Assembly: GCA_025927955.1 (NCBI GenBank)
Contig: JAICKK010000005.1
Coordinates: forward strand, 1 to 48,631
Length of the DNA: 48,631 nt
From: Nocardioidaceae bacterium
GTDB taxonomy: Bacteria; Actinomycetota; Actinomycetes; Propionibacteriales; Nocardioidaceae
Reading direction: 5' to 3'
Positions 3,877-36,923 of this stretch are shown piece by piece. A program made the position numbers and the translations under genes. A model generated the notes under the pieces. That model did not search any database. It saw only the letters and a list, made by a program, of their open reading frames with translations, and was not told where the DNA came from. Every line of letters begins with the position of its first letter. Positions within the stretch are counted from its first letter, which is position 1.

Positions 3877-4638
3877 TTGTTCTACTGGCTGCTCAAGTGG
3901 GTGCTCGTCGGCCCCCTCCTCAAGCTGGTCTTCCGGCCCCAGACCGAGGGCGCCACTCACGTGCCCGCGACCGGGCCCGCGATCCTCGCGAGCAACCACC
4001 TGTCCTACGCCGACTGGCTCTTCATGCCGCTGACCCTGCCACGGCGGGTGACGTTCGTGGCGAAGGCCGAGTACTTCACCAGTCCCGGTCTCAAGGGCTG
4101 GTTCCAGAAGAAGTTCTTCTCCGGCGCCGGCCAGGTGCCCATCGACCGGTCGGGCGCCAGTGCCGCCGAAGGCGCGCTGGCCGCGGCGAAGAGGATCCTG
4201 GCCAGGGGCGAGCTGTTCGGCATCTACCCGGAGGGCACCCGCTCCCACGACGGCCGGCTCTACCGCGGACGGACCGGCGTGGCCCGCCTGGCCCTGGAGA
4301 CCGGCGTCCCGGTGGTCCCGGTCGCCGTGCTCGGCACCGACGTGGTGGCGCCGCCGGGGAAGAAGTTCGGGGCGGTCGTGCGGCCCGTGGTGCGGTTCGG
4401 CGAGCCGCTCGACTTCTCGCGCTACGAGGGCCTGGAGAACGACCGCTTCATCCTGCGGTCGATCACCGACGAGATCATGTACGAGATCATGCGGCTCTCC
4501 GGCCAGGAGTACGTCGACGTGTACTCCACCCGGGCCAAGGCGCTGGACAAGGAGGCGAGGACGCCGGCTGCCGGCGTTTCCGAGGGCGGTGCCGGCGACG
4601 TCGGGGGCCCGGGGAGCGCCGAGCTCAAGGCCTCCTGA
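3877..4638 (+). CDS. 1-acyl-sn-glycerol-3-phosphate acyltransferase (PlsC family)
   Basis: SNHLSYADW (NHX4D-like) and FGIYPEGTRSHDGRLYRGRTGVARLA motifs. TTG start with AGAGAGAGG upstream. Confidence 0.85.
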   Translation: MFYWLLKWVLVGPLLKLVFRPQTEGATHVPATGPAILASNHLSYADWLFMPLTLPRRVTFVAKAEYFTSPGLKGWFQKKFFSGAGQVPIDRSGASAAEGALAAAKRILARGELFGIYPEGTRSHDGRLYRGRTGVARLALETGVPVVPVAVLGTDVVAPPGKKFGAVVRPVVRFGEPLDFSRYEGLENDRFILRSITDEIMYEIMRLSGQEYVDVYSTRAKALDKEARTPAAGVSEGGAGDVGGPGSAELKAS

Positions 4639-4641
4639 CCC

Positions 4642-5874
4642 GTGCCGCGGCGGACGCAGGGCCCGCTCGGCCTCGTGGACCCGGTGGCGGCCCAGATGCA
4701 GACCACCCTCTTCCGGGCCCTCGCGGTGCTGCGCGTGGTGGTCGCCGCCTACGCCGTGGTGCTGGACGTCAGCCGGTGGCGCGACTTCGAGCGACCGCTG
4801 CTCGGCTGGGTGGTCGTCGGCGTCGTGGTGACGTGGACGCTCGTCGCGGGGTGGGCCTACGACGCACCCCGACGGCGCACCACCACCCTGCTCGTGCTGG
4901 ACCTCGCGGTCACCGCCGGCACGCTGCTGGCGACGCCGTGGGTCGAGGGGGAGGCGATGCTCGCCCGGCACGCCGCGACGCTGCCGTCCTTCTGGGTGGT
5001 CGCCGCCGTCCTGGCCTGGGCGATCGCCCGAGGCTGGCCCGGGGGAGTGGGGGTCGCCGTGGTCGTGTCGGCGCTGGACCTCTCGGCGCGCACCCACCCG
5101 ACCGGCACCACCTGGGGCAACATCTTCCTCCTGCTGCTCGCCGGTGGCGTGGTGGGCTACTCCGCGGGACTCGTCGCGGAGGCGAGCGAGGCACGGGCCG
5201 AGGCGGAGCGGGTCGCGGCCGCGCTCGCCGAGCGGGCCCGGCTGGCCAGGGCCGTGCACGACGGCGTGCTGCAGGTGCTGGCCCTGGTGCAACGTCGCGG
5301 CGCAGAGGCCGGCGGGGAGGCCGCCGAGCTCGGCCGTCTCGCGGGCGAGCAGGAGACCGCGCTGCGGGCGCTGGTCCAGGGCGCGTCCGCCACGGCCGGC
5401 GCCGTCCCGCTCCCGGCGGGGGAGGACCTCACCGAGGCCCTGGCCCGGCTGGCCTCCGAGCGGGTCACCGTCTCGGGTCCCGCCGCGCCCGTCCGGCTCC
5501 CCCGCCGCGCAGTGGACGAGCTCACCGCAGCGGTCCGGGCCTGCCTGGACAACGTGTCCCGTCACGCCGGTGCGCAGGCGCGCGCCTGGGTGCTGGTCGA
5601 GGGCGGCGCGGAGTCCGTGGCGGTCACGGTCCGCGACGACGGACCGGGGATCGCGCCGGGCCGGCTCGAGGCGGCCGTCGCGGAGGGCCGGATGGGCGTC
5701 GACGGGTCGATCCGGGGACGGCTCGCCGACCTCGGCGGCGCGGCCCGGTTGGTCACCGCGCCCGGTGAGGGGACCGAGTGGCGGTTGGTCGTTCCCGCAC
5801 GCCAGGGTCGGGGTCGGGCACGCGAGGCGCCCACTGGAAGTGGTTCTCGAGGTCGTCGACCGCCGTCAGCGTGA
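4642..5874 (+). CDS. Sensor histidine kinase, MacS-like (DUF5931 N-terminus, HisKA_3-type H box)
   Basis: N-terminal TM helices, ERARLARAVHDGVLQVLALVQ H box, CLDNVSRHAGA...VRDDGPGIAPGRL ATPase motifs. Confidence 0.8.
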   Translation: MPRRTQGPLGLVDPVAAQMQTTLFRALAVLRVVVAAYAVVLDVSRWRDFERPLLGWVVVGVVVTWTLVAGWAYDAPRRRTTTLLVLDLAVTAGTLLATPWVEGEAMLARHAATLPSFWVVAAVLAWAIARGWPGGVGVAVVVSALDLSARTHPTGTTWGNIFLLLLAGGVVGYSAGLVAEASEARAEAERVAAALAERARLARAVHDGVLQVLALVQRRGAEAGGEAAELGRLAGEQETALRALVQGASATAGAVPLPAGEDLTEALARLASERVTVSGPAAPVRLPRRAVDELTAAVRACLDNVSRHAGAQARAWVLVEGGAESVAVTVRDDGPGIAPGRLEAAVAEGRMGVDGSIRGRLADLGGAARLVTAPGEGTEWRLVVPARQGRGRAREAPTGSGSRGRRPPSA

Positions 5875-34650: not shown

Positions 34651-34752
34651 GTGACCGATCCTGGCGGTCCGGTCGCCGGTTCTCGGGGAAGGTCGGCGGA
34701 TGCGACGCAGACACGACAGACGGAGCAGGTGGGCACGGCCCGGACATGACAG

Positions 34753-34782
34753 CGGCCCCGAGTCCGCTGGGGACCGGGGCCG
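34753..34782 (+). terminator. Terminator-like hairpin downstream of dinB
   Basis: CGGCCCCG...CGGGGCCG inverted repeat; a second hairpin GCACCGT...ACGGTGC at 34870-34892. Confidence 0.55.
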
Positions 34783-34947
34783 CCGTGGCCGGGGCATCGG
34801 GGGGCAGATGATCCGGCTCCGCGAGGGGCAGGGGGGCTTGCACTCCCGCGGGGGTCTCTCCCGGCCGGCGCACCGTCTCCCAGGAACGGTGCGTCAGCGC
34901 GGGAAGTCACCAGGAGTCTCGGCGTGGACCGGGGGCCCGCTAGATAG

Positions 34948-34984
34948 CCCGTTCGGGTCATTCGACGCCACCCGTTCGGGTGGT
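34948..34984 (+). promoter_or_regulatory. Twin palindromes CCCGTTCGGGT x2, candidate operator upstream of rsiG-whiG
   Basis: Copies at 34948-34958 and 34971-34981. Second sits in a larger palindrome CCACCCGTTCGGGTGG (34969-34984). Confidence 0.5.
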
Positions 34985-35112
34985 TCAGGCGCTCGCGGGC
35001 TGGGCAGAACGCTCAATCGCGACAAGGCAGAGGTACAGAAGACGAGAATAGGGCTCGACATCAGAGGTCCCCTCGGGAGCATGGGGGACGGGACATCGGA
35101 GACGTCGACACC

Positions 35113-35658
35113 ATGAGCTCGCCCGCAGACGACGACGGCAGACATGCCCTCAGCGAGGTCGCCCCTCCGCCGGACACCTGGGAGCATCTGTCCCTCGACG
35201 ACCTGAGGCGCTACCGCCGCCAGCTCGCCGACGAGGAGGAGAAGGTCTCCTACTGGCGGCGGCTCGTGCACGCGCGCATCGACGTCCTGGAGGCCGAGTC
35301 GCACCAGGAGCGCCCGCTGACGATCAAGGAGCTGGTCAGGGTGCTGGGGGACACGGGCACGGGCCGCAACCGCCACGCGCTGGTCAGCGTGCGGGCGGCC
35401 GACGACCTGCCCGAGCTGCCGGCGCTGCACGACATGTGGGTCACCGAGGTCGACAGCCACGACCCCGAGGCCCTCGGGGAGGCGGTGCGTCGGCTGCGCT
35501 CCGCGGAGGCGCAGCTCACCGACTACCGCAAGGCGCTGCACGTGCGGCTCGACGAGGCGACCGCGGAGCTCATCGTGCGCTACCGCGCGGACCCCACCAG
35601 CGCGCTGGTCGCGTTCGCCAGCCCGCACAGCGGAGCCACCCGGGGAGGAGCGGCATGA
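35113..35658 (+). CDS. rsiG: RsiG-like anti-sigma factor with two c-di-GMP-type motifs
   Basis: EEKVSYWRRLVHARID and EAQLTDYRKALHVRLD both fit E(X)3[S/T](X)2R(X)3H(X)3D, close to the Streptomyces RsiG motif E(X)3S(X)2R(X)3Q(X)3D. Overlaps whiG-like gene. Confidence 0.75.
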   Translation: MSSPADDDGRHALSEVAPPPDTWEHLSLDDLRRYRRQLADEEEKVSYWRRLVHARIDVLEAESHQERPLTIKELVRVLGDTGTGRNRHALVSVRAADDLPELPALHDMWVTEVDSHDPEALGEAVRRLRSAEAQLTDYRKALHVRLDEATAELIVRYRADPTSALVAFASPHSGATRGGAA

Positions 35659-36380
35659 GCCCGAGCGAGGACCTCGACCAGATCTGGCGAGACTTCCGTG
35701 CCACGAACGACCCCGGGCTGCGCAACCGGCTGGTGCTGCAGTACTCCCCCCTCGTCAAGTACGTCGCGGGACGGTTGCGGACCCGGATGCCGGAGTCGGT
35801 CGAGCAGGACGACCTGGTCTCCGACGGGGTGCTCGGGCTGATGGACGCCATCGAGCGCTTCGAGCCCGCGCGCGGGCTGTCCTTCCAGACCTTCGCGGTG
35901 CCCCGCATCCGCGGCGCCATCATCGACGGCATGCGGGCGATGGACATCGTGCCGCGCTCCGTGCGGGACAAGCTGCGCGTGGTCACCCGTGCCCAGGCCT
36001 CGCTGGAGGAGCGGCTGGGCCGCGTGCCGGAGGACGTCGAGGTGGCCCGTGAGGTCGGGATCCCGGTCCAGCAGCTGCGCGACCTGAGCCGCAAGGCCAG
36101 CTCGAGCCACGCCAACCTCGACGACTTCGACCTCGCCGACGAGCTGTCCTCGGCGGCCGACCACAGCCTCGAGCAGGGGGACGTCAGGGCGTCCCTGATG
36201 CAGGTCGTGGACCAGCTCGGCGAACGGCACCGTGTCGTCATCGCGCTCTACTACTTCGAGGGCCTGACCCTCGCCGAGATCGGGCAGGTCCTCGGCGTCA
36301 CCGAGTCCCGCGTCAGCCAGGTGCACCGCCGGGCCACCACCGTCATGAGGCAGCGCCTGGTCGAGCTCGAGTCGGTGTGA
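35655..36380 (+). CDS. whiG: WhiG/FliA-family RNA polymerase sigma factor
   Basis: QYSPLVKYVAGRLRTRMPESVEQDDLVSDGVLGLMDAIERFEPARGLSFQTFAVPRIRGAIIDGMR...DIVPRSVRDK...LTLAEIGQVLGVTESRVSQVHRRA. Confidence 0.92.
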   Translation: MSPSEDLDQIWRDFRATNDPGLRNRLVLQYSPLVKYVAGRLRTRMPESVEQDDLVSDGVLGLMDAIERFEPARGLSFQTFAVPRIRGAIIDGMRAMDIVPRSVRDKLRVVTRAQASLEERLGRVPEDVEVAREVGIPVQQLRDLSRKASSSHANLDDFDLADELSSAADHSLEQGDVRASLMQVVDQLGERHRVVIALYYFEGLTLAEIGQVLGVTESRVSQVHRRATTVMRQRLVELESV

Positions 36381-36473: not shown

Positions 36474-36923
36474 GTGCCGCTCTCGGAAGAAGAGTTGCGT
36501 CTGCTCGAGCAGATGGAACGAGCTTTGGTCGCCGAGGACCCGAAGCTCGCGTCCACCCTGCGGGGGACGACGTTGCGGGCGACTGCGCGCCGGAGGGCGC
36601 TGCTCGCGGGCCTGGCCTTCGTGGTGGGTGTCGGGGTGCTGATGACCGGTGCGGTCACCCGGGTGGTGGCCGTGGGCATCGTCGGCTTCGTGGTGATGCT
36701 GGCCTCGGCCTACGTCGCCTTGACCTCGTGGCGCAACCAGAACAGCGCCCCCGACAAGCCGGCGTCGCCCGCCGGCTCCGCACCCAACCTGACGGTGGTC
36801 GAGGGCGGCCGGGCGCGCAAGCGGCTCGGCCGTGGCCACCGCGGCCGCTCGCGCACGCACGGCTCGATGATGGAGCGCTTCGAGGAGCGCTGGCGCCGGC
36901 GCCGCGACCAGAACGGCTTCTGA
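36474..36923 (+). CDS. DUF3040 domain membrane protein
   Basis: MPLSEEELRLLEQMERALVAEDPKLASTLRG plus two TM helices. Confidence 0.88.
   Translation: MPLSEEELRLLEQMERALVAEDPKLASTLRGTTLRATARRRALLAGLAFVVGVGVLMTGAVTRVVAVGIVGFVVMLASAYVALTSWRNQNSAPDKPASPAGSAPNLTVVEGGRARKRLGRGHRGRSRTHGSMMERFEERWRRRRDQNGF

What the first reader, a model, noticed from the sequence alone, without database searches (positions are those of the whole stretch)
34948..36380. RsiG-like c-di-GMP anti-sigma factor overlapping a WhiG/FliA sigma factor, with a double [S/T]-R-H-D motif
The gene before the WhiG/FliA-type sigma factor encodes a short helical protein with EEKVSYWRRLVHARID and EAQLTDYRKALHVRLD. Both fit E(X)3[S/T](X)2R(X)3H(X)3D. 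From memory, Streptomyces RsiG holds WhiG when bound to c-di-GMP and uses two copies of E(X)3S(X)2R(X)3Q(X)3D. Here the Q position is His in both copies. The two genes overlap by 4 nt (ATGA at 35655), implying translational coupling and 1:1 production. In an organism that probably does not form Streptomyces-like spores, the switch may control motility or another program. The His substitution could change c-di-GMP stoichiometry or affinity.
Basis: partly seen in the sequence, partly recalled or inferred. Interest (0 to 1): 0.8.

Follow-up and report, generated by a model that had tools for sequence, protein, structure and literature searches.

The report
A soil-type actinobacterium carries a divergent version of the known c-di-GMP-controlled RsiG/WhiG sigma-factor switch, and promoter evidence suggests that here it controls secreted matrix-degrading enzymes, c-di-GMP enzymes and small RNAs rather than spores or flagella.

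Summary
The gene at 35113-35658 is an RsiG (Pfam PF22802), with two E(X)3[S/T](X)2R(X)3H(X)3D motifs. It overlaps by 4 nt a WhiG-type sigma gene (35655-36380) that keeps the c-di-GMP-contacting K/G/R.

The double His is not a local mutation. It marks a well-supported RsiG subfamily ('B', 98/99), distinct from canonical RsiG. Published His-type RsiG of Conexibacter, a homodimer and so also His/His, binds c-di-GMP, so the substitution probably does not change stoichiometry.

This sigma is not the flagellar one. A separate FliA, lacking K/G/R, tracks flagella in 5 of 7 congeners, while rsiG-whiG is in 7 of 7. Outside the genus, subfamily B lies in or beside type IV pilus, GGDEF and chemotaxis genes.

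Those loci share a promoter, TCAAG-N16-CCGAT, absent from the sampled canonical-RsiG loci. In the window's genus it precedes secreted Exo_endo_phos (nuclease-like) proteins, other secreted hydrolases, a GGDEF gene, and a conserved structured small RNA divergent from rsiG.

Best reading: c-di-GMP-armed RsiG holds WhiG; low c-di-GMP frees it to switch on a secreted-hydrolase and small-RNA programme. The switch core is strongly supported by homology. The regulon is inferred. Nothing was tested biochemically.

The parts
35113..35658 (+). [quoted passage not shown]
   Evidence: Pfam PF22802 75.6 bits; phmmer to 6pfj RsiG 4.2e-7; Foldseek top 4 hits all RsiG, prob 1.00; tree
35236..35283 (+). motif 1 E42-S46-R49-H53-D57 in helix 28-64
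   Evidence: sequence; invariant in alignment A1; AF2 helix
35506..35553 (+). motif 2 E132-T136-R139-H143-D147 in helix 118-159
   Evidence: sequence; invariant in A1; AF2 helix
35655..36380 (+). WhiG/FliA-family sigma factor, 241 aa, start overlaps rsiG stop (ATGA)
   Evidence: TIGR02479 226 bits over cut-off 189.6; 6pfv WhiG 3.5e-63
35757..35774 (+). K35-YVA-G39-R40 = S. venezuelae WhiG K57/G61/R62, the c-di-GMP contacts
   Evidence: alignment; role from PMC8325347
34918..34944 (-). WhiG-type promoter of the divergent small RNA (TCTAG-N17-CCGAG; consensus TCAAG-N15..17-CCGAT)
   Evidence: conserved in 7/7 genomes; PWM trained on other genera, p 0.003-0.017 in all seven
34742..34924 (-). structured small RNA: hairpin, two C-rich-loop hairpins (CCCCCC), terminator-like hairpin; coordinates are the model match, the transcript would start near 34910
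34944..34961 (.). palindrome (consensus ATAGTCCGAACGGACTAT) between the small-RNA promoter and rsiG, possible operator
   Evidence: alignment of 7 genomes

Best explanation
rsiG and whiG are a co-transcribed, translationally coupled anti-sigma/sigma pair. RsiG forms the antiparallel helical hairpin that cradles two c-di-GMP molecules. In that armed state it holds WhiG through sigma2/sigma4, with the nucleotide also touching WhiG K35/G39/R40. When c-di-GMP falls, WhiG is released and reads promoters of the form TCAAG-N16-CCGAT. In this Nocardioidaceae genus those promoters lie ahead of secreted Exo_endo_phos (DNase-I-fold) proteins, other secreted hydrolases, a GGDEF gene, and small RNAs with two C-rich loops, one of them divergent from rsiG. 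I infer that low c-di-GMP switches on a programme that dissolves or remodels the extracellular matrix and uses the C-rich RNAs to repress other messages. Shown here: homology, motif and contact residues, fold, synteny, a separate flagellar sigma, and promoter conservation. Inferred: c-di-GMP binding, sigma sequestration, which sigma reads the promoter, small-RNA expression, and the dispersal role.
For: RsiG family and fold. WhiG family. K/G/R conserved in all RsiG-linked sigmas aligned, GRE in both flagellar FliAs aligned. Overlapping start. 7-33 GGDEF genes in each of 7 genomes, so c-di-GMP is probably made. FlhA and FliA present together in G000, G001, G003, G004, G006 and absent together in G002 and G005, which keep rsiG-whiG. 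Promoter: in subfamily-B loci 8 of 10 exact TCAAG-Nx-CCGAT (x = 8-26) have x = 16, reversed and scrambled controls 0; in the A-labelled locus set the only N16 hits (5) fall in B or C loci. Exact site ahead of Exo_endo_phos genes in G000 (two), G001, G003, G004 (two) and G006. PWM trained only on other genera scores 6 of 8 such upstreams at p<=0.0065. Same promoter before metalloprotease-like (G003, G006), PIEDY-type secreted (G001, G002, G004), GH26 (G002) and GGDEF (G000:C34) genes. Small RNA.
Against: No binding, interaction or expression data exist for these proteins. Genome-wide the exact TCAAG-N15/16-CCGATR excess is modest (52 hits against 38 for the reversed control), so many hits are noise and the regulon rests on gene-family recurrence noticed after the search. 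G001's main Exo_endo_phos pair has no site, and G002 has no relative of that query. Flagellar FliA seems to read a similar promoter (TCAGG-N15), so cross-talk is possible. In the window's own genome the small-RNA promoter has two mismatches. AF2 confidence is moderate (pLDDT 70). PF03372 covers phosphatases and lipases as well as nucleases.
Confidence: 0.68

Rival explanations
1. It is the motility switch: WhiG here drives flagellar genes and RsiG plays the part of FlgM.
For: WhiG belongs to the FliA clade; flagella genes occur in 5 of 7 congeners.
Against: A second FliA-like sigma is present in exactly the five genomes with FlhA, next to flgL/csrA-like genes in G000. It lacks K/G/R, and flagellar loci carry TCAGG-N15-CCGAT sites. 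rsiG-whiG persists in the two genomes without FlhA.
Confidence: 0.07
2. RsiG-B no longer responds to c-di-GMP: the His/His and Thr changes abolish or alter ligand binding, and it is a constitutive anti-sigma or senses something else.
For: Motif 2 is altered (T, H; F in family f16), and sister group C loses the motif-2 Asp in many members.
Against: Guanine-reading R and D are kept in both motifs in all 15 B members. His-type RsiG of Conexibacter binds c-di-GMP specifically (PMC8325347). WhiG keeps all three contacts.
Confidence: 0.12
3. The pair is a c-di-GMP switch, but TCAAG-N16-CCGAT promoters and the small RNA belong to another sigma or regulator, so the regulon is different.
For: Sigma assignment is by association only; genome-wide excess is small.
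Against: The motif concentrates in B/C RsiG loci and not in canonical ones. Its form matches the FliA/WhiG promoter class. It occurs in G002 and G005, where WhiG is the only sigma over the FliA/WhiG cut-off and no FliA is found.
Confidence: 0.15
4. It is an ordinary RsiG-WhiG sporulation switch as in Streptomyces.
For: Neighbour gene 36474-36923 is an SCO2097-family 'morphological protein'.
Against: That neighbour lies by position in what looks like the general dcw-region synteny (inference). The RsiG belongs to a separate subfamily from the Streptomyces one (100/100), and predicted targets are secreted hydrolases.
Confidence: 0.05

Closest known systems
[quoted passage not shown] PMC8325347)
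   Same: Twin E(X)3S(X)2R(X)3Q(X)3D-type motifs on two antiparallel helices, same fold by Foldseek, WhiG K57/G61/R62 conserved
   Different: Streptomyces belongs to another subfamily (A; Q/Q or H/Q); here H/H with Thr in motif 2, genes overlap, target promoter TCAAG-N16-CCGAT, predicted targets not sporulation
Rubrobacter radiotolerans (RsiG)2-(c-di-GMP)2-WhiG, type IV pilus switch (PMC8325347)
   Same: Non-sporulation use; pilus and DGC/PDE gene links recur around subfamily B in other genera
   Different: Rubrobacter RsiG is a single-motif homodimer; the window's genus has no PilM and its predicted targets are secreted hydrolases and small RNAs
Conexibacter woesei RsiG (single motif, His; PMC8325347)
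   Same: His at the stacking position and measured c-di-GMP binding
   Different: Homodimer of the single-motif class; Ser in its motif
6C / B11 small RNA of actinobacteria (RF01066; B11 in PMC10470900)
   Same: Two hairpins with C-rich loops
   Different: Below Rfam's gathering score (20 against 47 bits for the G005 copies, no match for the window copy); extra 5' hairpin; WhiG-type promoter; divergent from rsiG

Membership tests
RsiG (PF22802) | Pfam profile over cut-off | tested here: met
   75.6 bits against 27
RsiG | Two E(X)3S(X)2R(X)3Q(X)3D motifs, strict form (not required by the 2021 paper, which allows Q/H) | tested here: not met
   S->T in motif 2, Q->H in both; the paper's relaxed [Q/H] form is met in motif 1 and met but for Thr in motif 2
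RsiG | E, R and D contact residues in both motifs | tested here: met
RsiG | Antiparallel two-helix hairpin as in 6pfj/6pfv | tested here: met
   AF2 helices 28-64 and 118-159, pLDDT 70; Foldseek prob 1.00, TM about 0.5, next hit 0.15
RsiG | Binds c-di-GMP and sequesters WhiG only when bound | not testable with these tools
   needs FP/ITC and pull-down
WhiG/FliA sigma | TIGR02479 subfamily cut-off | tested here: met
   226.1 against 189.6 bits
WhiG/FliA sigma | NCBIfam WhiG equivalog NF004935 cut-off | tested here: not met
   265.6 against 343 bits, so not a strict Streptomyces-type WhiG
RsiG-partnered WhiG | K57/G61/R62 c-di-GMP contacts | tested here: met
   K35/G39/R40
Flagellar FliA switch | Occurs with flagellar genes | tested here: not met
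   present in G002 and G005 without FlhA or FliA
6C RNA (RF01066) | Gathering score 47 | tested here: not met
   no match for the window copy; 20 bits for two G005 copies
6C RNA | Two hairpins with C-rich loops | tested here: met

The most novel reading that the evidence does not exclude
A divergent RsiG subfamily not described in the papers read here runs a c-di-GMP switch that, in Nocardioidaceae without PilM-type pili, was rewired to a dispersal-type regulon. Released WhiG turns on secreted nuclease-like and other hydrolytic enzymes, c-di-GMP enzymes, and a family of 6C-like small RNAs, one encoded back to back with rsiG-whiG, so that second messenger, sigma factor and small RNA form one circuit.
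Probability: 0.5. Interest if true: 0.78.

Novelty: new variant of a known kind. Interest (0 to 1): 0.66.

Why it matters
RsiG-WhiG was described in 2021 as the only known sigma/anti-sigma pair targeted by c-di-GMP, with two known outputs (spores, type IV pili). A second major twin-motif subfamily with its own promoter class would extend the switch to a third output and link c-di-GMP to a small-RNA layer in actinobacteria. The promoter (TCAAG-N16-CCGAT) and the natural His/His and His/Phe variants give directly testable predictions about ligand stacking and regulon evolution.

Tried and rejected
The classical flagellar promoter TAAA-N14-16-GCCGATAA has no exact hit in seven genomes and only three one-mismatch hits; the -35 had to be re-derived as TCAAG from pilus loci of other genera. 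PilM-type pili as the target in the window's genus: PF11104 absent from all seven genomes. GGDEF genes as a general target: no exact N15 or N16 site in 30 GGDEF loci, though one exact site precedes the G000:C34 GGDEF gene and one TAAAG variant precedes the G004:C50 GGDEF-EAL gene. Autoregulation of rsiG-whiG in this genus: no good plus-strand site in six of seven, borderline in G006, unlike group C, where a site often lies just ahead of the rsiG-like gene. Rfam naming of the small RNA: no match at the window. The label set C is not monophyletic in the tree, so C is a genomic context, not a clade.

Full report
Observation. The ORF 35113-35658 (181 aa) and the sigma ORF 35655-36380 overlap by ATGA. 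The two motifs are exactly as described, with His at the stacking position of both and Thr for Ser in motif 2. Pfam calls the first protein RsiG (PF22802, 75.6 bits). phmmer finds S. venezuelae RsiG and the Rubrobacter RsiG chains in the PDB. The second is a FliA/WhiG-family sigma (TIGR02479 over cut-off; under NCBI's strict WhiG equivalog cut-off), closest in the PDB to S. venezuelae WhiG. An AF2 model gives helices 28-64 and 118-159, each holding one motif (pLDDT 70). Foldseek's first four hits are RsiG chains with probability 1.00; the fifth is unrelated at 0.15.

What was known. PMC8325347 gives the structures, the motif roles, the spread of RsiG in Actinobacteria, and the type IV pilus output in Rubrobacter. 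It notes Q->H only in motif 1 and a second RsiG copy only in Acidothermus. It measured c-di-GMP binding for the His-type RsiG of C. woesei, which is of the homodimeric single-motif class, so an effectively His/His site already works in vitro.

A separate subfamily. PF22802 is in 7 of 7 members of the genus but in none of the other genera of the family in the first sample; a wider sample found one more in the family, G201. In a class-wide sample 129 of 395 genomes have it. Reading 66 loci gave a clean split. Canonical group A has SY(V/L)RR and mostly Q in motif 2. A second group with SYWRR is separated with 100/100 support. Within it, B (98/99) holds the window, Nocardioides relatives and family f16. 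The rest ('C', not monophyletic) mostly lies between crp-like and nth genes. Stacking residues are H/H in B of Nocardioidaceae, H/F in B of f16, mostly Q/H in C with the motif-2 Asp often lost, and mostly Q/Q in A. Several genomes carry both A and C copies (for example G063, G069, G071, G085), more second copies than the paper's search found.

Context. Outside the window's genus, B sits between pilT and pilB (L111, L112, L013; in L014 directly after pilT), with pilM/N/O, prepilin peptidase and a WhiG within a few kb in f16; beside prepilin peptidase and GGDEF with whiG next to it in N. rubriscoriae (L016); or beside GGDEF with whiG and chemotaxis genes (L015). Gene names here are mine, read from sequence signatures, except where Pfam is cited. 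In the window's genus the order is dinB - small RNA (minus) - rsiG - whiG - DUF3040; G001 has a GGDEF gene in dinB's place.

Not the flagellar sigma. FlhA is in G000, G001, G003, G004, G006 and absent in G002 and G005. A second FliA-like sigma follows the same pattern. It has GRE where every RsiG-linked sigma aligned has KGR, and flagellar loci show TCAGG-N15-CCGAT.

Promoter. The classical consensus is absent. Scanning the pilus loci gave TCAAG-N16-CCGAT ahead of pilM, prepilin peptidase, GGDEF and whiG genes. In 91.6 kb of B loci, 8 of 10 exact matches over 19 spacer lengths have 16 bases; reversed and scrambled controls give none. In 251 kb labelled as the A set, the only N16 matches fall in the five B or C loci mixed in. 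In C loci it often lies just ahead of the rsiG-like gene, which suggests sigma-driven feedback there.

Regulon in the genus. TCAAG-N15/16-CCGATR gives 52 hits in seven genomes against 38 for the reversed pattern, so single hits mean little. But N16 hits recur before the same gene families: secreted Exo_endo_phos proteins (PF03372) in G000 twice, G003, G004 twice and G006, plus one in G001 recognised by sequence; a secreted metalloprotease-like family in G003 and G006; a secreted PIEDY..YQPQT family in G001, G002, G004 (one of these sites, G004, has spacer 15); a conserved small protein of about 90 aa in G005 and G006; GH26 in G002; GGDEF in G000. A weight matrix trained only on other genera scores 6 of 8 Exo_endo_phos upstreams at p 0.0005-0.0065. 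Spacer sequences differ between orthologues while -35 and -10 stay.

Small RNA. The rsiG upstream region holds a conserved minus-strand element in all seven genomes: promoter (p 0.003-0.017 in each), a 5' hairpin, two hairpins with C-rich loops, and a terminator-like hairpin. The window copy folds with z = -3.6. On nine sequences, 9 pairs show changes on both sides, 0 of 500 shuffles reach this, and sliding the partners drops pairing from 92% to 31-49%. A covariance model finds two tandem copies in G005, each with its own exact TCAAG-N16-CCGAT. It resembles 6C/B11, whose C-rich loops repress messages with G tracts (PMC10470900), but it is under Rfam's cut-off, so I do not file it as 6C.

Mechanism and limits. 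Most likely c-di-GMP-armed RsiG holds WhiG, and a fall in c-di-GMP frees WhiG for hydrolase, c-di-GMP-enzyme and small-RNA promoters. The first half follows from homology to a solved system; the second is promoter inference. No protein was assayed, the sigma-promoter link is by association, and Exo_endo_phos covers several activities. The dispersal idea is my inference.

Noticed in passing
window 34742-34924 (-): Conserved structured small RNA with two C-rich loops, divergent from rsiG, with a WhiG-type promoter; no Rfam family reaches threshold.
   Followed up: yes
L172 (G005:C16) 4363-4718: Two tandem paralogues of that small RNA, each with an exact TCAAG-N16-CCGAT promoter; weak CcsR1 and 6C matches below gathering.
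   Followed up: partly
L113-L122, L124-L129: RsiG-like 'C' genes, mostly between crp-like and nth genes in many actinobacterial families, often beside a canonical RsiG elsewhere in the same genome; motif-2 Asp often lost; a TCAAG promoter often lies just ahead of the gene.
   Followed up: partly
window 34944-34961: Palindrome ATAGTCCGAACGGACTAT (window copy degenerate) between the small-RNA promoter and rsiG, conserved in most congeners: possible operator.
   Followed up: no
L047/L123 (G201): Nocardioidaceae RsiG-like protein next to a divergent whiG with degenerate motif 1 (Cys for Ser, Glu for Gln/His): may have lost c-di-GMP binding.
   Followed up: no
L182 3105-3371 and L173 about 3733: Conserved small protein of about 90 aa with the promoter in front in two genomes; no family assigned.
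   Followed up: no
L015: MAG contig labelled Acidobacteria carries a Nocardioidaceae-like rsiG-whiG with chemotaxis genes; the label is probably wrong or the contig misbinned.
   Followed up: no
L087-L094, L105, L184: Flagellar promoters of this genus look like TCAGG-N15-CCGAT, different from the TCAAG-N16 class.
   Followed up: partly
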